Program-made: the position numbers and the translations under genes | The notes under the pieces: model-generated | Seen by the model: only the letters and a program-made list of their open reading frames with translations | What the model was told of the DNA's origin: nothing | Databases searched by the model: none | Shown here: positions 4,187 through 57,119 of the stretch, one piece after another | How the letters are laid out: each line of letters starts with the position of its first letter | Numbering within the stretch: the first letter of the stretch is position 1 | NCBI GenBank assembly: GCA_013285705.1 | Contig: JABDHA010000006.1 | Coordinates: forward strand, 1 to 64,000 | DNA length: 64,000 nucleotides | Source of the DNA: Acidobacteriota bacterium | Lineage (GTDB): Bacteria; Acidobacteriota; Terriglobia; Terriglobales; Acidobacteriaceae | Direction of reading: 5' to 3'

Positions 4187-4288
4187 CTGGCACTTTCAGT
4201 CATGCCCGCAAGTCATTCTATCTAGATAACTTAATAATTCAGGGAACCTGGCCGCTCAACTGCTCGTATGCCGCAGGAGAGGATCGCC

Positions 4289-6841
4289 ATGCAGACCCTG
4301 CGCCAAGACATCTCCTACGCATTGCGTCAGATGCGGCTGTCTCCCGTCTTTACCTTCACCGCAATGCTGACGCTCGCGCTGGGTATTGGCGCAACCACGG
4401 CCATCTTTTCCCTGATCCACACAGTCATGCTCAAATCGCTGCCGGGAGTCGATGCTTCGCGTCTGTACCGCATCGGCGATGGCACCGACTGCTGTGTCGA
4501 AGGCGGCCCGCAGGACAACTGGGGCATGTTCTCCTATTCGCTCTACCAGCGCATGAAGACGGCAGCCCCTGAATTTGAGCAGATGGCCGCCTTTCAGGCC
4601 ATGCCTGCGCAATTCAGCGTGCGCCGCGGAGAGAGCGACCACCAGGCCAAGCCGTTGCGCGGCGAATTTGTTACCGGGAATTATTTTTCCACCTTTGGCG
4701 TCGGATCGTTCGCCGGACGCACGATCACTCCCAGCGACGATCAACGCTCCGCGGCACCCGTAGCCATGCTGAGCTACCGCGCATGGCAGCAGCAATATGG
4801 TTCTGACCCTTCGGTGATCGGCTCGACTTTTGTCATCGAAGGCCATCCTTTCACCATCGTCGGCGTTGCCCCTCCTGGATTCTTCGGAGAAACGCTGCGC
4901 AGCGATCCTCCAGAACTTTGGCTGCCCCTGCAGCAGGAACCGCTGGTGAATGGCGCCAACGCGCTCCTGCAGCAATCTGTTTCCGCGTGGCTGCGGGTCA
5001 TTGGCAGGATAAAACGCGGCGTCACACCGGATGGCATCGCCCCACGGCTTACCGGAGTGATGCAGCAATGGCTCCTACATGAAAGCGACCTCCCTGCTGA
5101 ATTCCTGCCTGCGATTGAAAAGTCGCTGCCGAAGCAGGTCATCCACGTCGTTCCCGCAGGTGCCGGAGTCGGAGCCATGAAGGCCGATTATGGTGACAGT
5201 CTGCGTATTCTGCTCACCGTCTGCTGCCTGGTGCTCTTCATTGCCTGCGCCAATATCGCAAACCTGCTGCTCGCTCGCGGCGCCGCCCGCCGCTCACAGA
5301 CATCGGTCCGTCTGGCATTGGGCGCATCGCGTCAGCGGCTCATTCGCCAGTCTTTGACGGAAAGCGTTGTCCTCTCCATCCTCGGCGGGCTCGCCGGCAT
5401 CGTGGTTGCGTATTTAGGTGTAAGAGTCATTGTCGCGCTTGCCTTCCACAGTGCGCACTTCATCCCCATCGATGCAGCGCCATCGCTGCCCGTGCTTGCT
5501 TTTGCCTTTGGACTGTCTCTCATCACCGGCGTCCTCTTCGGAACAGCTCCGGCATGGTTCGCCTCGCACGCCGATCCAGCCGAAGCCCTGCGTGGCGCGA
5601 ATCGCAGCACCCACGATCGCTCCTCGCTGCCGCAGAAGATTCTCGTCGTCGTGCAGGCCACGCTGTCCATCGTGCTGCTTGCAGGCGCAGGCCTGCTCAC
5701 GCGCAGCCTCAGCAAGCTCGAACATCAGGACCTCGGCTTCGATACGGACCGCCGCCTCAGCATCGTGATGAACAGTCCGCTGGCAAGTTATTCGACGCCA
5801 CAGCTGGACGCGCTCTATCGCAATTTGCAGGACCGCCTCTCGCATCTGCCGGGCGTGGAACGCGCCGCGCTGGCCGGATATACGCCCTTCCTCGACAACT
5901 GGGGCGAGTTAATCGTTCCCGAAGGCCACGGCATGCCCGATGTCGATACGAATAACGACAATGCCTCCTGGGACCGCGTAAGTGCAGGCTATCTGGAAAC
6001 GATGGGCCACACGATTCTTCGTGGCCGTGGCATCGCCGAGCAGGACACAGCCTCCACGCAAAACGTTGCCGTCGTCAACGAAACATTTGCCCGCAAATTT
6101 TTCAAGAATCAGGATGCCCTCGGAAAACACTTCGGTCTCGACATGCCCGAAAATAACACCACCTATGAAATCGTCGGCATCGTCCGCGACTTCAAATATG
6201 TCGATGCGCGCAGTCCCGCACGCCCCATGTTCTTCGCTTCCCTTGCGCAATATGTGGCCTATAAGAATCCGCTGATGCTGACATTCGATCATCGCACCCA
6301 CTTCATCAATGGCGCAGTGCTCAAGCTGCGAGGCGATGCCAACGGCCTTGAACCTCTCATCCGCAAGACCTTCAGCGACGTCGATCCCAATCTGACCATC
6401 CTGAATATTCAGCCCATGCAAGAGCAGGTAGATTCGAACTTCGATCAGGAGCGCACCGTCGCGCAGATGACCGGACTCTTCGGCATCCTCGCGCTGGTTC
6501 TTGCCGCCATCGGCCTGTATGGCGTCACAGCCTACACCGTCGAGCGCCGCACCAGCGAAATCGGCGTGCGCATGGCGCTCGGTGCTAACCGCGGCAATAT
6601 CGTTCAGCTCGTTTTGCGCGGAGCCTTTCTGCAAATCGTCATCGGACTTGCCATCGGCATTCCCATATCCATCGGCTGCGGACGACTCATCGCCGCGCAG
6701 CTATATGAGGTAAAGAGCTGGGATCCGCTGGTGCTCGCAGCCTCTATCACCGCTCTGGCGATATGTGCATTCATCGCCAGCGTCATTCCCGCGCAACGCG
6801 CCGCATCCATCGATCCGGTGAAAGCCCTGAGAACGGAGTAA
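4289..6841 (+). CDS. ADOP-like (MacB/FtsX) orphan ABC transporter permease, paralog 1
   Basis: MQTLRQDISYALRQMRLSPVFTFTAMLTLALGIGATTAIFSLIH; two FtsX-like blocks; terminal IPAQRAASIDPVKALRTE. ATG 4289 with upstream GGAGAGG. Confidence 0.9.
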   Translation: MQTLRQDISYALRQMRLSPVFTFTAMLTLALGIGATTAIFSLIHTVMLKSLPGVDASRLYRIGDGTDCCVEGGPQDNWGMFSYSLYQRMKTAAPEFEQMAAFQAMPAQFSVRRGESDHQAKPLRGEFVTGNYFSTFGVGSFAGRTITPSDDQRSAAPVAMLSYRAWQQQYGSDPSVIGSTFVIEGHPFTIVGVAPPGFFGETLRSDPPELWLPLQQEPLVNGANALLQQSVSAWLRVIGRIKRGVTPDGIAPRLTGVMQQWLLHESDLPAEFLPAIEKSLPKQVIHVVPAGAGVGAMKADYGDSLRILLTVCCLVLFIACANIANLLLARGAARRSQTSVRLALGASRQRLIRQSLTESVVLSILGGLAGIVVAYLGVRVIVALAFHSAHFIPIDAAPSLPVLAFAFGLSLITGVLFGTAPAWFASHADPAEALRGANRSTHDRSSLPQKILVVVQATLSIVLLAGAGLLTRSLSKLEHQDLGFDTDRRLSIVMNSPLASYSTPQLDALYRNLQDRLSHLPGVERAALAGYTPFLDNWGELIVPEGHGMPDVDTNNDNASWDRVSAGYLETMGHTILRGRGIAEQDTASTQNVAVVNETFARKFFKNQDALGKHFGLDMPENNTTYEIVGIVRDFKYVDARSPARPMFFASLAQYVAYKNPLMLTFDHRTHFINGAVLKLRGDANGLEPLIRKTFSDVDPNLTILNIQPMQEQVDSNFDQERTVAQMTGLFGILALVLAAIGLYGVTAYTVERRTSEIGVRMALGANRGNIVQLVLRGAFLQIVIGLAIGIPISIGCGRLIAAQLYEVKSWDPLVLAASITALAICAFIASVIPAQRAASIDPVKALRTE

Positions 6842-6850
6842 CAGTCCATC

Positions 6851-9412
6851 ATGCAAACTCTTCGCCAGGACATTTCCTACGCACTGCGGCAGATGCGTCT
6901 GTCCCCCGTCTTCACCCTTACGGCGATGCTGACGCTCGCGCTCGGCATTGGCGCAACGACGGCAATCTTCTCGTTGATTCATACCATCATGCTCAAGTCG
7001 CTGCCGGTCGTCGATCCGTCGCGCCTCTACCGCATCGGCGATGGCAACGACTGCTGCGTCGAAGGCAGCGCGCAGGACAACTGGGGCATGTTCTCCTATC
7101 CCTTCTACGAGCTCATGAAGAAGAACACGCCTGAGTTCGAGGAGCTTGCCGCCTTCGAGGCCGGCTCACGCACCCTCAGCACGCGTCGCAGCGAGAGCGA
7201 CCGTATCGCCAAGCCGTTGCGCGCCGAATTCATCAGCGGCAATTATTTCTCCACCTTCGGTCTCGGCGCTTTCGCCGGACGCACCATCGCAGTCGCCGAC
7301 GACCAGGCTTCAGCGGCCCCGGTCGCCATGCTCAGCTACCGCACCTGGCAGCAGCAGTACGGCTCTGATCCAAAAATCGTCGGCTCGTCCTTCATTCTCG
7401 ACGGCCATCCCTTCACCATCATCGGCATCACTCCTCCCGGCTTCTACGGCGAAACCTTGCGCAGCGATCCCCCGGAGTTGTGGATTCCCATTCTGCAGGA
7501 GCCCGTCTTCACCGGAGCGAATTCCTTTCTGCATCATTTCCAGGCATGGCTGCGCGTCATCGGCAGGCTCAAGCCCGGCGCAACCGCGGACGCTGTGCCC
7601 GCGCGCATGACAACCCTCATCCGGCAGTGGCTGGTCAATGACAGCGGCATGCCCGCCGACTGGATGACCGGCATCAAAGCCGGCCTGCCCAAGCAGATCG
7701 TCAAAGTCGTTCCCGCCGGAACCGGCGTCGGCCTTATGAAAGAGGACTACGGCGCCAACCTCCGCATCCTGCTCGGCGTCTGTTGCCTGGTCCTGCTCAT
7801 CGCCTGCGCCAACATTGCCAACCTGCTGCTCGCTCGCGGCACAGCCCGGCGCTCGCAGACCTCCGTCCGGCTAGCACTCGGCGCATCGCGCAAAAGGCTC
7901 ATCCGCCAGTCGCTCACCGAGAGCCTCGTTCTTTCCGTCTTCGGCGGCCTTGCAGGACTGGTCATCGCCTATCTGGGAGTCAAGGTGCTGGTCGCCCTCA
8001 CCTTCCACAGCGCGAAGTACGTTCCCATCGACGCTGCTCCCTCGCTGCCCATCCTCGCCTTCGCCTTCGCTCTTTCTCTGTTCACCGGCATGCTCTTCGG
8101 CACCGCTCCCGCATGGTTCGCCTCGCACGCCGATCCGGCCGAAGCGCTGCGCGGAGCCAACCGCAGCACGCACGACCGCTCTTCGCTGTCGCAAAAAATT
8201 CTCGTCATCCTCCAGGCGACGCTCTCCGTCGTCCTGCTCGCAGGCGCTGGCCTCTTAACGCGCAGCCTCATCAACATGCAGCACCAGACGCTGGGTTATG
8301 AGACCGACCACCGCGCCCTCATCAGCCTGACCGGTCCCTTCAATTCCTACTCAAAGCCAAAGCTCGACGCCATGTACATCGAGCTGCAGGATCGCCTCGC
8401 CCACATTCCCGGCGTCGAAAGCGCCGCCGTCGCCCTCTATGCGCCGCTCCAGGACAACTGGGGGGAAATGGTCATTCGCGAAGGCCATGGCATGCCCAAC
8501 ATGGATGAAAAGGTCGGCTCGTCCTGGGACCACGTCAGCCCCGGCTACCTCGAAACGCTGGGCCAGCAGATCGTGCGCGGACGCTCCCTCACTCCGGAAG
8601 ACACAGCCTCCACGCGGAACATCGCCGTCGTCGATGAGACCTTCGTCAAGCGCTTCTTCAAGCCCGGCGAAGACCCCATCGGCCAGCGCTTCGGCCTTGA
8701 CCTGCCCAAATACGGCGCTACTTTCGAAATCGTAGGCGTTGTTCGCAATGCAAAATATATGTGGGGAAATCTCTACGGAACCGAAGAGCTGCGGCCTATC
8801 TTCTTCGTCCCCCTGGCCCAGCGCACGACTTACGACAACGCCATGATGCAGGCCATCGACGACGACACGCACTTCATCGAAGGCGCAGTTCTCAAGCTGC
8901 ACGGCAGCATGGACGGACTCGAGCCGCAGGTCCGCAGCGTCCTCAGCGATGTCGATCCCAACATCACGCTGCTTGGGCTCGATACGATGCAGGAGCACAT
9001 CGACGCTAACTTCGACGCGCAGCGAGCCGTCGCGCAGATGACCGGCCTCTTCGGCATCCTCGCGCTCATCCTCGCCGCCGTCGGCCTCTATGGCGTCACC
9101 GCCTACACCGTCGAGCGTCGCACCGGCGAAATCGGCGTCCGCATGGCGCTCGGCGCCGACCGCACCAACATCGTCAAGCTCATCCTGCGCGGAGCGTTCC
9201 TGCAAATCGTCATTGGTCTCGCCATCGGCATTCCCATTTCCATCGGCTGCGGCCATCTACTCGCCACGCAGCTCTACCATGTCAAAAGTTGGGACCCGCT
9301 GGTGTTGACCGGCTCGATCGTCGCTCTGGGAATCTGCGCGCTCATCGCCAGCATCATTCCCGCACAACGGGCCGCATCCATTGACCCCGTAAAGGCACTA
9401 CGCACCGAATAG
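6851..9412 (+). CDS. ADOP-like (MacB/FtsX) orphan ABC transporter permease, paralog 2
   Basis: Same architecture as the preceding gene along its whole length; only 9 bp between stop and start. Confidence 0.9.
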   Translation: MQTLRQDISYALRQMRLSPVFTLTAMLTLALGIGATTAIFSLIHTIMLKSLPVVDPSRLYRIGDGNDCCVEGSAQDNWGMFSYPFYELMKKNTPEFEELAAFEAGSRTLSTRRSESDRIAKPLRAEFISGNYFSTFGLGAFAGRTIAVADDQASAAPVAMLSYRTWQQQYGSDPKIVGSSFILDGHPFTIIGITPPGFYGETLRSDPPELWIPILQEPVFTGANSFLHHFQAWLRVIGRLKPGATADAVPARMTTLIRQWLVNDSGMPADWMTGIKAGLPKQIVKVVPAGTGVGLMKEDYGANLRILLGVCCLVLLIACANIANLLLARGTARRSQTSVRLALGASRKRLIRQSLTESLVLSVFGGLAGLVIAYLGVKVLVALTFHSAKYVPIDAAPSLPILAFAFALSLFTGMLFGTAPAWFASHADPAEALRGANRSTHDRSSLSQKILVILQATLSVVLLAGAGLLTRSLINMQHQTLGYETDHRALISLTGPFNSYSKPKLDAMYIELQDRLAHIPGVESAAVALYAPLQDNWGEMVIREGHGMPNMDEKVGSSWDHVSPGYLETLGQQIVRGRSLTPEDTASTRNIAVVDETFVKRFFKPGEDPIGQRFGLDLPKYGATFEIVGVVRNAKYMWGNLYGTEELRPIFFVPLAQRTTYDNAMMQAIDDDTHFIEGAVLKLHGSMDGLEPQVRSVLSDVDPNITLLGLDTMQEHIDANFDAQRAVAQMTGLFGILALILAAVGLYGVTAYTVERRTGEIGVRMALGADRTNIVKLILRGAFLQIVIGLAIGIPISIGCGHLLATQLYHVKSWDPLVLTGSIVALGICALIASIIPAQRAASIDPVKALRTE

Positions 9413-9442
9413 TTCTTCGCGCATTTCAATAAATCATTCCCC

Positions 9443-9484
9443 TTGACATTCGACCTGAAGACGCGTAACTTCAGGTCGAATGTC
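9443..9484 (+). promoter_or_regulatory. PadR autoregulatory operator/promoter overlapping the padR start codon
   Basis: TTGACATTCGACCTGAAG-ACGCGTAA-CTTCAGGTCGAATGTC: perfect 16-bp inverted repeat (9445-9460 / 9469-9484) containing a TTGACA -35 (9443-9448) and the ATG (9480-9482). Confidence 0.75.
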
Positions 9485-9833
9485 GACTAAAGAGACCGAA
9501 AATCAGTTACTGCAGGGCACGCTGGATCTGCTCATTCTTCAGACCCTTGCCTTTGGGCGCGCGCATGGGCACGCGATCGCACGGACGATTGAACACAGAT
9601 CCGAAGAAGTGCTGCAGGTCGGGCACGGCTCGCTGTATCCAGCACTGCAACGGCTCATGAAATCTGGATTGATCACAGCCGAAGACGGCATTTCAGAGAA
9701 CAATCGTAAAGCCAGGTTCTATCGCCTTACCCGAAAAGGACGGCAAAGATTATCGCACGAAACGTCAAAGTGGCAGCGGTTTTCGCTCGCCATAACGCGC
9801 ATTCTTGCGCCAGTTGTTGAGGAAGGCAAGTAG
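9480..9833 (+). CDS. PadR family transcriptional regulator
   Basis: [57 protein letters not shown]: PadR winged-helix signature. Confidence 0.93.
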
Positions 9834-9848
9834 CAAAGGAGCCCTGTG

Positions 9849-12566
9849 ATGTTTTGGAAGAGTCGCAAAGACCTTTTGGAAGATGAGATCCAAACGCACA
9901 TCGATCTCGAAACACAGGAGAACATCGAGGCTGGCATGTCACCGGAGGAAGCGCGACACGCTGCGATGAGGAAGTTCGGCAATGTCCTGCTGGCAAAAGA
10001 GAAGTCGCGTGACGTCTGGGGTTGGCGATGGATGGAACGGTTGTGGCAAGACGTGAATTTCAGCCTTCGCATGCTGCGCAAGTCGCCGGGCTTCACTTTT
10101 GTCGCCGTTCTCACACTGGCGCTTGGCATCGGCGCGAATGCGGCCATCTTTACGCTTGTTCATGCTGTGCTGATGAAGAACCTGCCTGTCGCTGATCCAA
10201 AGACATTGATAAGGATTGGCGATGCCGATGATTGCTGTGTAGGTCAAGGACGGCCCCGTGATGACGCCTTCTCACTATTTCCAACTGCGGCGTGGCAGCT
10301 TTTGAAGCAAAATGCTCCTGAATTCGAGGAACTGGCGGCCATCCAGGCGGGATTTGAATGGCGGCCACTCACTGTCAGACGCGATGGACCGAATCAGGCA
10401 CAGTCGGCAATTGGCGAGTTCGTATCCGGCAATTACTTCCGCACCTTTGGACTACAGCCGCAACTAGGTCGGCTGCTGACCGACTCGGATGATGTTGCGG
10501 GTGCCCCCATGATGGCTGTCATGAGCTATCAGACCTGGCAGCGCGACTATGCAGGCGACCCGAATGTTGTCGGCAGTACGTTCTGGGTGAATACAAAGCC
10601 GGTAACCATCGCGGGTGTTGCGCCATCTGGATACTTTGGCGACCGCATGTCAAGTACGCCACCCGATTTCTATCTGCCGATTGAGACAATGCCAGTCCTG
10701 GCAACTGCTCCTTACGTGCATCAGCCGAAGGTGCAGTGGTTGTACATGGTAGGACGAGTGAAGCCAGGCACGCCACTGCCGGCGCTGCAGACAAAATTAA
10801 GCGCGCTGCTCAGGCAATACATGGCGGAGAACAAAATCTACTATACCGGCAACCAAAAATTGGAAATGGCAAAAGTGCATGTGGTGCTTACGCCTGCCGG
10901 AGCAGGCATCCAGAACATGCAGGAAGCGTATGGATCGCAACTGCGTATGCTGATGGCGCTTTCCGGGCTGGTTCTTCTCATTGCCTGCGCGAACATCGCA
11001 AATCTTCTTCTCGTCCGCGGAATGGCGCGCAAAGCTGAAATGTCCGTGCGAACGGCGTTAGGTGCCGCCAGAACAAGAATCATCCGACAGCTCTTGACCG
11101 AGAGCATCATCCTGTCTTTGGTCGGTGGAATAGCAGGTCTGACCGTGGCGTACGGTGGCACCCGAATGTTGCTGGCGCTGGCCTTCCCCGGAGCACAGAA
11201 TGTTCCCATTCACGCGAGTCCATCGTTACCAGTCCTTGGATTTGCATGTGGGCTATCGCTGTTGACGGGCATTCTCTTTGGAGTAGCTCCCGCTTTGATG
11301 ACTGCCCAGGCAGATCCAGCGGATGCGCTGCGTAACGGCTCACGGACAACGGCGCGCAGTACTTCTTTACTGCAGCATGGACTGGTGATTTTTCAAGCTG
11401 CTCTGTCGCTGGTATTGCTGGTAGGTGCGGGCTTATTCTCCCTGAGTCTCTATAAGCTCCAGACTACCGACCTCAAGCTCGAATCAACTAACCGTTATAT
11501 CGTCCACATCAATCCGCAAGCTGCGGGTTACAAGCAGACGCAAGTGGAAGCGCTCTACCGGACGATGGAAGAAAGGTTCCATGCGATTCCGGAGGTGGAG
11601 AAGGTAGGGATCAGCTCCTATACGCCGATGGAAGACAACAATATCGGCGACAACGTTCAAGTACAGGGAAAGCCGGATCCGAATCTTAACTCTTCCTGGA
11701 TCAAAGTGAATGCAGATTACTTCGACTCCGTGGGAACTCACGTGGTCATGGGACGAGGCATCAGCCCACAGGATACTTCCACCTCAATGACCGTAGCGGT
11801 GGTGAACCAGGAGTTTGTGAAGCAATTGTTCCATCCGGGGGAAAATCCGATCGGTCATCACTTTGGCTCGCCCGGGCCAGAGTCAACCGGAGACTTTGAA
11901 ATTATCGGCGTGGTAGAAGATACCGTCTATTCCAATATCTATGACAAGCACCACGTAATGTATTTTGTTCCGCTGGCACAAAGGCCGTTGAGCGATAAAG
12001 GGCCCATTGAAAATGATCCGATTATGTATGCAGGCGCCATCGTAATAAAGACAAGTCGGTCCATAAACAACATGGAAGCCCTGGCACGGCAGACGCTCGC
12101 GAGTATCAATCCAAATCTGACCGTGGTGAAATTCCAGACATTTGATCAGCAAATTTCAGATCAATTCGCTCATGAGCGCATGCTTGCACGACTGACGGTT
12201 CTCTTTGGCGCTCTTGCCTTGATGCTCGCAACAATCGGGCTCTATGGCGTGACAGCCTACACGGTTGCGCGGCGAACGAGTGAGATTGGCATTCGCATGG
12301 CTCTCGGCGCGAAGCGTCTCCGCGTAATCGGAATGGTCATGCGTGGAGCCATGATCCAGGCCGCGCTGGGGCTGCTCATTGGCATTCCGACGATTCTGCT
12401 CTGCGCGCGCTTCGTCGAGTCGCAGCTTTACGAGATCAAGGGCATCGACGACGGTGTGTTGCTGGTGTCGATTGTTACGCTGGTGCTGGCTGCATCGGTC
12501 GCCGGGTTGATTCCTGCACGACGGGCCGCATCGATTGATCCGGTAAAAGCCTTACGCACCGAATAG
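9849..12566 (+). CDS. ADOP-like permease, paralog 3, with N-terminal helical extension
   Basis: FWKSRKDLLEDEIQTHIDLETQENIEAGMSPEEARHAAMRKFGN then MLRKSPGFTFVAVLTLALGIGANAAIF; terminal IPARRAASIDPVKALRTE. 15 bp downstream of padR; aaggag SD. Confidence 0.9.
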   Translation: MFWKSRKDLLEDEIQTHIDLETQENIEAGMSPEEARHAAMRKFGNVLLAKEKSRDVWGWRWMERLWQDVNFSLRMLRKSPGFTFVAVLTLALGIGANAAIFTLVHAVLMKNLPVADPKTLIRIGDADDCCVGQGRPRDDAFSLFPTAAWQLLKQNAPEFEELAAIQAGFEWRPLTVRRDGPNQAQSAIGEFVSGNYFRTFGLQPQLGRLLTDSDDVAGAPMMAVMSYQTWQRDYAGDPNVVGSTFWVNTKPVTIAGVAPSGYFGDRMSSTPPDFYLPIETMPVLATAPYVHQPKVQWLYMVGRVKPGTPLPALQTKLSALLRQYMAENKIYYTGNQKLEMAKVHVVLTPAGAGIQNMQEAYGSQLRMLMALSGLVLLIACANIANLLLVRGMARKAEMSVRTALGAARTRIIRQLLTESIILSLVGGIAGLTVAYGGTRMLLALAFPGAQNVPIHASPSLPVLGFACGLSLLTGILFGVAPALMTAQADPADALRNGSRTTARSTSLLQHGLVIFQAALSLVLLVGAGLFSLSLYKLQTTDLKLESTNRYIVHINPQAAGYKQTQVEALYRTMEERFHAIPEVEKVGISSYTPMEDNNIGDNVQVQGKPDPNLNSSWIKVNADYFDSVGTHVVMGRGISPQDTSTSMTVAVVNQEFVKQLFHPGENPIGHHFGSPGPESTGDFEIIGVVEDTVYSNIYDKHHVMYFVPLAQRPLSDKGPIENDPIMYAGAIVIKTSRSINNMEALARQTLASINPNLTVVKFQTFDQQISDQFAHERMLARLTVLFGALALMLATIGLYGVTAYTVARRTSEIGIRMALGAKRLRVIGMVMRGAMIQAALGLLIGIPTILLCARFVESQLYEIKGIDDGVLLVSIVTLVLAASVAGLIPARRAASIDPVKALRTE

Positions 12567-56363: not shown

Positions 56364-56729
56364 TTAGACCTCCTCGCTGCTCGGTCCCCCATCCAGGATC
56401 AGTCCCATCGCTCGCGTCAATCGCTGCCATTCGGTGGTTTTTTCTACAAGCTGCTGGCGTCCTTTAGGTGTCAATGAATAAAAGCGCGCCTTGCGATTGT
56501 TCTCGCTCACGCCCCACTTGGCGCTGATCCATTTCTTGTCTTCAAGCCGCTGCAGCGCAAGATAGAGCGAACCATGATCGACAAAAAAGACCTCTTCCGA
56601 CTGGCGGAGTATGCAGCGCGCTATACCTTGTCCGTGACGCGCACCGAGTACCAGGGTTTTCAGAATGAGCAGGTCAAGCGTGCCCTGCAATAGAGCAATG
56701 CGATCTTCGGAATTATTTTGGGAAGGCAT
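56364..56729 (-). CDS. PadR family transcriptional regulator
   Basis: [68 protein letters not shown]. Start 56729 supported by the shared operator/start-codon layout; 3 bp upstream of the permease. Confidence 0.93.
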   Translation of the reverse strand: MPSQNNSEDRIALLQGTLDLLILKTLVLGARHGQGIARCILRQSEEVFFVDHGSLYLALQRLEDKKWISAKWGVSENNRKARFYSLTPKGRQQLVEKTTEWQRLTRAMGLILDGGPSSEEV

Positions 56730-56767
56730 CCGACCCAAGAATGGCATAGCCTCGGGTCGGATGTCAA
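56725..56767 (-). promoter_or_regulatory. PadR operator/promoter overlapping the padR start codon (second copy)
   Basis: Minus strand TTGACATCCGACCCGAGG-N9-TCTTGGGTCGGATGCC: 13 of 16 arm positions complementary, includes TTGACA and the ATG. Confidence 0.7.
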
Positions 56768-57119
56768 CAGGAATATACGAGCCCTGAATGGTCACCGTAT
56801 GATGTTGCCGTTTGCGTTGCTCGGGTCAACGCTCGACTGGACCGTGGCGCGCGGCCGGAAGCTTTCTTTCCAGGTAACGTAGAACTCCTGTGCGCATAGA
56901 GTCTGATTGCTGGCAACTGAATATGAGAAGACGCCGACATGGCAGATGCGGCGAGAAGTTCAATCGACGAATCAATCGCAAAACGAAAGTCATTGGAGGC
57001 TTCCCTCCAGCGAATTCGCGAGAGGAAAATATGTGGCGGTCATGGCTGAATGTATATATAAATTGCAGAGGCTTCCGTATCTTTGAAAGTCGAGACCCAA
57101 GGGCCGAATAAGTTCCAAA

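What the first reader, a model, noticed from the sequence alone, without database searches (positions are those of the whole stretch)
9443..9484. Leaderless padR with -35 box and start codon inside one perfect 16-bp inverted repeat
TTGACATTCGACCTGAAG-N8-CTTCAGGTCGAATGTC. TTGACA begins in the left arm and the padR ATG sits in the right arm. A 17-nt spacer puts a weak -10 (TAACTT) in the loop and right arm, and predicts transcription starting about at the ATG. A bound PadR dimer would then block promoter and start codon together. Arms and positions are read directly; promoter function and leaderless status are inferred.
Basis: partly seen in the sequence, partly recalled or inferred. Interest (0 to 1): 0.7.

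Follow-up and report, generated by a model that had tools for sequence, protein, structure and literature searches.

The report
Self-repressing gene with operator-centred start codon
In soil acidobacteria, a small PadR-type repressor gene appears to be switched off by its own protein at a pair of DNA sites, one on the promoter's -35 box and one centred exactly on the start codon, and its message probably begins at the start codon with no leader; this is a tidy, conserved and apparently undescribed variant of a familiar feedback switch.

Summary
The repeat is real: perfect 16-bp arms (9445-9460, 9469-9484), 8-nt loop, the only perfect repeat with arms of 12 bp or more in the window (loop up to about 54). 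The gene is a TIGR03433 PadR followed by an ADOP permease in an acidobacterial genome. Comparative data support the promoter and the leaderless call: 28 of 28 orthologues (window included) have a TTGACA-like -35 (27 exact), 17-18 nt, TANNNT, 7-9 nt, start codon; only 2 have a Shine-Dalgarno core. The reading of one perfect 16-bp operator needs revision. The strongest conserved dyad is centred on the T of ATG: YTCnRGTCGA-ATG-NCGACYnGAR (window 9470-9492), half of it inside codons 2-4, where codon 2 is NCG in 28 of 28 although the amino acid varies. The same 10-bp half-site recurs just after the -35 box, with a weaker mirrored copy on it (9437-9459). Tandem dyads at this spacing recur in many other acidobacterial padR promoters. 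Best reading: autorepression by two PadR dimers at a leaderless promoter. Binding and the transcription start are untested.

The parts
9443..9448 (+). -35 hexamer TTGACA
   Evidence: exact in 27 of 28 orthologues, TTGATA in the other, 17-18 nt before TANNNT
9466..9471 (+). -10 hexamer TAACTT (TANNNT), ending 8 nt before ATG
   Evidence: TANNNT starts at -13 to -15 in 28/28 orthologues and almost nowhere else upstream
9478..9480 (+). predicted transcription start (5' UTR about 0-2 nt)
   Evidence: inference from the -10 to ATG distance; TANNNT about 12 bp upstream of the start is the published leaderless signal (PMC3160421)
9437..9459 (+). operator dyad O1, TTCCCCTTGA-CAT-TCGACCTGAA, centred on the -35 box; right half (L, 9450-9459) strong, left half (H1, 9437-9446) weak
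   Evidence: TTGA-anchored symmetry centre +5, 3.9 sd above mean; L is the best upstream hit of a matrix trained on R and D in 27/28 orthologues; H1 near-consensus in L100, L105, L121
9470..9492 (+). operator dyad O2, TTCAGGTCGA-ATG-TCGACTAAAG, centred on the T of the start codon (halves R 9470-9479, D 9483-9492)
   Evidence: highest symmetry centre in orthologues, 7.0 sd above mean; pairs -2/+4 and -4/+6 complementary 28/28, -3/+5 27/28, -5/+7 26/28, -9/+11 25/28
9480..9833 (+). padR, 117 aa, TIGR03433 padR_acidobact, presumed autorepressor
   Evidence: TIGR03433 141 bits (cut-off 101.8), PF03551 66.7 bits
9846..12566 (+). ADOP duplicated permease, second gene of the presumed operon; AAGGAG Shine-Dalgarno upstream, in contrast to padR
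   Evidence: TIGR03434 860 bits; sequence; ADOP directly downstream in 28/28 orthologues

Best explanation
This is the autoregulatory promoter-operator of an acidobacterial padR-ADOP operon. Sequence shows: a sigma70-type promoter (TTGACA, 17 nt, TAACTT) whose -10 ends 8 nt before the only possible start codon, so the mRNA should begin at or within about 2 nt of AUG (leaderless). Comparison shows: four copies of a 10-bp half-site (consensus TCGACYnGAR) forming two tandem dyads about 33 bp, three helical turns, apart: O1 centred on the -35 box and O2 centred on the start codon, with the -10 box between them. Inferred: one PadR dimer binds each dyad on the same face of the DNA, excludes RNA polymerase from the -35 and start regions, and so shuts off padR and the permease gene until a ligand releases it. 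Because the gene is leaderless, the operator also dictates the DNA of codons 1-4.
For: 28 orthologues (70% identity or more, window included; Acidobacteriaceae such as Granulicella, Edaphobacter, Acidicapsa, Terracidiphilus) all have a TTGACA-like -35, 17/18 nt, TANNNT, 7-9 nt, start codon; only 2 have an SD core. Symmetry centres fall on the T of ATG (7.0 sd) and in the -35 box (3.9 sd). Codon 2 is NCG 28/28 (Ser 15, Thr 11, Pro 1, Ala 1) and codon 3 is ACT 23/28, whereas other S/T/P/A/V/G codons of the gene average 0.51 top third-base frequency (max 0.82) and ACT is only 12 of 122 Thr codons. Among 15 divergent promoters the half-sites change together: R-D p = 5e-5, L-R p = 2e-4, outer H1 about 0.02-0.03. 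L120 carries TTCTTGGGTCGG-ATG-CCGACCCAAGAA, a 12-bp dyad centred on the ATG. Of 129 non-orthologous padR promoters 56 exceed the 99th percentile of shuffles for tandem dyads, 45 of them at 29-36 bp offset, against 28% of shuffles in that range. The operator is private to padR: TTGACATNCGACCNGA has 5 matches in 61 genomes, all just upstream of TIGR03433-type padR genes (against the gene list); the full pattern has 9 matches in 201 genomes, 8 opening directly into padR.
Against: No binding or TSS data. H1 is weak in this window (score -4.9 against 14.0 for L), so O1 may be a half-site, and only 7 of 28 orthologues pass the generic tandem-dyad test. The canonical PadR box ATGT-N8-ACAT is absent here. 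The L-R inverted repeat is itself a conserved symmetry (3.5 sd), so a unit that bridges L and R cannot be excluded. The -10 matches consensus at only 3 of 6 positions. The orthologues are one clade, so they are not independent observations.
Confidence: 0.72

Rival explanations
1. One long operator: a PadR dimer (or a dimer of dimers) recognises the L-R inverted repeat as a unit, and the symmetry at the ATG and at the -35 box is secondary.
For: L and R half-sites change together (p = 2e-4); L-R centre is the second strongest symmetry; the L019/L114 type has 11-14 bp L-R arms that are perfect while D is degraded.
Against: L-R core centres are 24 bp apart, more than one PadR dimer spans in the canonical 8-10 bp spaced box (PMC5428041); loop length varies by 1-2 bp among orthologues; L-R arms outside the 7-bp core do not match in most orthologues; R-D symmetry is stronger and reaches into coding DNA.
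Confidence: 0.15
2. The repeat works in RNA: read-through from the upstream ADOP gene (6851-9412, same strand) makes a 16-bp hairpin that hides the AUG, so padR is translated only from its own leaderless transcript.
For: Fold of -40 to +8 is -29.5 kcal/mol, z -7.5 here, and stable in all 28 orthologues; no terminator separates the genes.
Against: An ADOP gene ending just upstream on the same strand was seen in only 1 of 28 orthologues; a DNA operator produces the same hairpin for free; the D half-site and O1 symmetry are not explained.
Confidence: 0.06
3. padR has an ordinary leader from an undetected upstream promoter, and the AGGT before the ATG serves as a weak ribosome-binding site.
For: AGG(T) lies 7 nt before the ATG in many members.
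Against: SD core of 4 nt in only 2 of 28; the TTGACA/TANNNT geometry is conserved to within 1 nt in 28/28; the scan finds no other + strand promoter in 9350-9900 (whose strict rule also misses this one); leaderless genes are predicted for about 13% of genes in three acidobacterial genomes (PMC3160421).
Confidence: 0.1

Closest known systems
LmrR and PadR autoregulated operators (PMC5428041, PMC3506622)
   Same: PadR-family repressor that binds inverted repeats in its own promoter and controls a linked membrane transporter; one case (lmrCD) binds two dimers.
   Different: Canonical box is ATGT-N8-ACAT; that box is absent here. Here two tandem dyads flank the -10 and the second is centred on the start codon of a leaderless gene.
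acuR-acuI-dddL of Rhodobacter sphaeroides (PMC3017554)
   Same: Repressor gene first in the operon, mRNA experimentally leaderless, inverted-repeat operator overlapping the promoter.
   Different: TetR family; a single 8-bp-arm repeat within the promoter; no operator half inside the coding sequence is reported in the passages read.
Leaderless repressors lambda cI and Tn1721 tetR (named in PMC3017554)
   Same: Low-output leaderless mRNA for a self-regulating repressor.
   Different: Unrelated proteins and operator layouts; not a conserved family-wide arrangement.
TIGR03433 padR_acidobact / TIGR03434 ADOP pairs (NCBIfam)
   Same: This locus is a member: both genes score above the curated cut-offs.
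   Different: No paper in the held library describes their operators.

Membership tests
TIGR03433 acidobacterial PadR paired with ADOP | PadR protein above the TIGR03433 cut-off | tested here: met
   141 bits against 101.8
TIGR03433 acidobacterial PadR paired with ADOP | ADOP (TIGR03434) gene directly downstream | tested here: met
   9846-12566, 860 bits against 622.3; 28/28 orthologues
Canonical PadR operator | ATGT-N8-ACAT inverted repeat in the promoter | tested here: not met
   No match near 9443-9492; the two matches in the window are at 8949 (inside the upstream ADOP gene) and 52012
PadR autorepressor | protein binds its own promoter and represses it | not testable with these tools
   Indirect only: half-site covariation and confinement of the motif to padR promoters
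Leaderless gene | TANNNT -10 about 12 bp before the start codon and no Shine-Dalgarno | tested here: met
   28/28 with TANNNT starting at -13 to -15; 2/28 SD cores; criterion from PMC3160421
Leaderless gene | 5' end of mRNA at the AUG | not testable with these tools
   needs 5' RACE or Cappable-seq
AcuR-type leaderless autorepressor operon | TetR-family repressor with single inverted repeat over the promoter | tested here: not met
   The protein is PadR and the operator is a tandem dyad; it works like AcuR but is not one

The most novel reading that the evidence does not exclude
Acidobacterial PadR-ADOP operons share an undescribed operator class, two tandem dyads three helical turns apart that flank the -10 box, and in one large subclade the start codon has moved into the centre of the downstream dyad, giving leaderless autorepressors whose first codons are set by their own operator.
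Probability: 0.55. Interest if true: 0.6.

Novelty: new variant of a known kind. Interest (0 to 1): 0.5.

Why it matters
Acidobacteria carry large expanded sets of PadR-ADOP pairs (about 1 to 30 PadR matches per genome in most relatives searched) of unknown signal and cargo. A readable operator code, private to each padR, lets the regulators be matched to promoters by sequence and gives ready reporters for finding their ligands. It also offers a clean natural case of a start codon sitting at the centre of an operator, where protein-DNA recognition constrains synonymous and even amino-acid choice in the regulator's own first codons.

Tried and rejected
Chance: rejected. Intrinsic terminator: none found. 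Conserved 16-bp palindrome: rejected, arms beyond the 7-bp core are not kept in orthologues. Canonical PadR box: absent. Regulon beyond padR: the O2 core RGTCGANNNTCGACY has 3 exact genome matches, one of them this site, and with one mismatch fewer matches than the reversed control, so no sign of a wider regulon. Plasmid-borne copies: no match. Single-sequence AlphaFold model of PadR had mean pLDDT 49 and was not used. One of nine exact operator matches in 201 genomes (L186) has no padR after it and no -10; treated as an orphan remnant.

Full report
Observation. The sequence at 9443-9484 is as described. The arms are 9445-9460 and 9469-9484, 16 nt, fully complementary, with an 8-nt loop. It is the only perfect inverted repeat with arms of at least 12 bp and a loop up to about 54 nt in the 64-kb window, and 100 Markov resamples of the window never gave arms above 13. 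The start codon at 9480 is firm: it is the only ATG/GTG/TTG between the preceding in-frame stop and the conserved LLQGTLDLL motif.

Genes. The 117-aa product is a TIGR03433 acidobacterial PadR (141 bits, cut-off 101.8) and the next gene, 9846-12566, is an ADOP duplicated permease (TIGR03434, 860 bits). The permease gene has an AAGGAG before its start while padR has none. The two genes stay together: ADOP follows in 28 of 28 orthologues and 110 of 117 testable PadR genes of the wider set.

Promoter and leaderless status. I collected 28 orthologues at 70% identity or more, the window's own included, from whole genomes and named genome records. Every one has a TTGACA-like -35 (27 exact, one TTGATA), a 17- or 18-nt spacer, TANNNT, and 7-9 nt to the start codon. 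TANNNT begins at -14 in 21, -13 in 4 and -15 in 3, and almost never elsewhere upstream; a Shine-Dalgarno core occurs in 2 of 28. A TANNNT signal about 12 bp before the start codon is the published signature of bacterial leaderless genes, predicted for about 13% of genes in three acidobacterial genomes (PMC3160421). So leaderless transcription is well supported by geometry, though not shown.

Where the symmetry really lies. Scoring dyad symmetry over ten base pairs at every centre, the orthologues peak at the T of the ATG (mean 0.69 complementary, 7.0 sd above the mean of all centres). Anchored on TTGA (13 sequences), a centre inside the -35 box also stands out (3.9 sd). The consensus around the start codon is YTCnRGTCGA-ATG-NCGACYnGAR. 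In some relatives this dyad is perfect: L120 has TTCTTGGGTCGG-ATG-CCGACCCAAGAA. A matrix trained only on the two halves of this start-codon dyad finds the site after the -35 box (L) as its best upstream hit in 27 of 28 orthologues. The mirrored fourth half-site on the -35 box is weak in the window but near-consensus in L100 and L105 (CTCTrGTTGA) and clear in L121 (TGGGTTGACATTCTACCCA). The simplest description is two tandem 23-bp dyads, O1 9437-9459 and O2 9470-9492, with centres 33 bp apart and the -10 between them.

Selection on DNA inside the gene. Codon 2 is NCG in 28 of 28 orthologues although it encodes Ser (15), Thr (11), Pro (1) or Ala (1). Codon 3 is ACT in 23 of 28. In the rest of the gene S/T/P/A/V/G codons average 0.51 for the commonest third base (maximum 0.82) and ACT is 12 of 122 Thr codons. 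This fits an operator half lying in codons 2-4.

Covariation and specificity. Among 15 divergent promoters, the four half-sites of one promoter resemble each other more than those of other promoters: R-D p = 5e-5, L-R p = 2e-4, the outer bases of the -35 half-site p about 0.02-0.03; L-D alone is weak (p = 0.06). Several of these 15 are probably not true leaderless members, which adds noise. The operator seems private: TTGACATNCGACCNGA has five matches in 61 genomes, each about 60-90 bp before the domain match of a TIGR03433-type padR, and the full pattern has nine matches in 201 genomes of the family, eight of which open directly into padR at the predicted ATG; the ninth looks like an orphan remnant.

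Family-wide view. In 129 other acidobacterial padR promoters, 56 exceed the 99th percentile of (mononucleotide) shuffles for tandem dyads; 45 of these have an offset of 29-36 bp against 28% of shuffles. In many the start codon lies 13-22 nt beyond the O2 centre, often with a Shine-Dalgarno, while in a subset it sits at the O2 centre. On a PadR tree the leaderless label needs 11 changes against 36.6 for shuffled labels; many forks are unresolved. I read this as an old promoter-operator layout in which the start codon moved into the operator in one large subclade.

Mechanism. Shown: sequence anatomy, conservation, half-site concordance, DNA-level constraint in codons 2-4. Inferred: PadR binds both dyads, one dimer each, on one face of the helix; this blocks polymerase at the -35 and start regions and represses padR and ADOP together; a ligand relieves it. 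The O2 size of 17-23 bp suits one PadR dimer, whose known boxes have half-sites 8-10 bp apart (PMC5428041, PMC3506622).

Comparison with the known. Leaderless autorepressor operons with an inverted repeat over the promoter are known, AcuR being the clearest (PMC3017554), and PadR autoregulation is known from LmrR. The canonical PadR box is absent here. I found no paper in the held library on the operators of acidobacterial PadR-ADOP genes, though subscription papers are not held. I rate it a new variant of a known kind.

Noticed in passing
window 56364-56780 (- strand): A second padR-ADOP pair in the window has the same layout with a related half-site: TTGACATCCGACCCGAG...CTTGGGTCGG-ATG-CCTTCCCAA; its likely ATG near 56728 is downstream of the longest-ORF start (GTG 56795).
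   Followed up: partly
window 56820-56842: CTCGGGTCAACGCTCGACTGGAC scores second in the window for the O2 dyad matrix and lies about 50 bp upstream of the second padR promoter; a possible extra operator.
   Followed up: no
L015 (own genome C4:63218): A padR-like gene of another subfamily (35.5 bits to PF03551) has its own long inverted repeat, CGCCAAGCATGATTAG..CTAATCATGCTTGGCG, starting in TTGACG and covering its ATG: a parallel case with unrelated arms.
   Followed up: partly
window 4268-9412: Two further ADOP permease genes lie in tandem upstream on the same strand with no padR directly in front of them.
   Followed up: no
L055, L058, L062 and relatives: Another padR group has tandem dyads that read as near-direct repeats (such as CCCATAGAAGTTCGAGTGG, about 30-32 bp apart), many with a normal Shine-Dalgarno start.
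   Followed up: partly
L186 (G072:C8:123857): An exact operator-like match, TTGACATTCGACC..GGTCGAATG, without a -10 and without padR after it; perhaps the remnant of a lost padR.
   Followed up: yes
L114: A record titled Cyanobacteria bacterium carries a 70%-identical padR with an acidobacterial-type operator; mis-binned contig or transfer.
   Followed up: no
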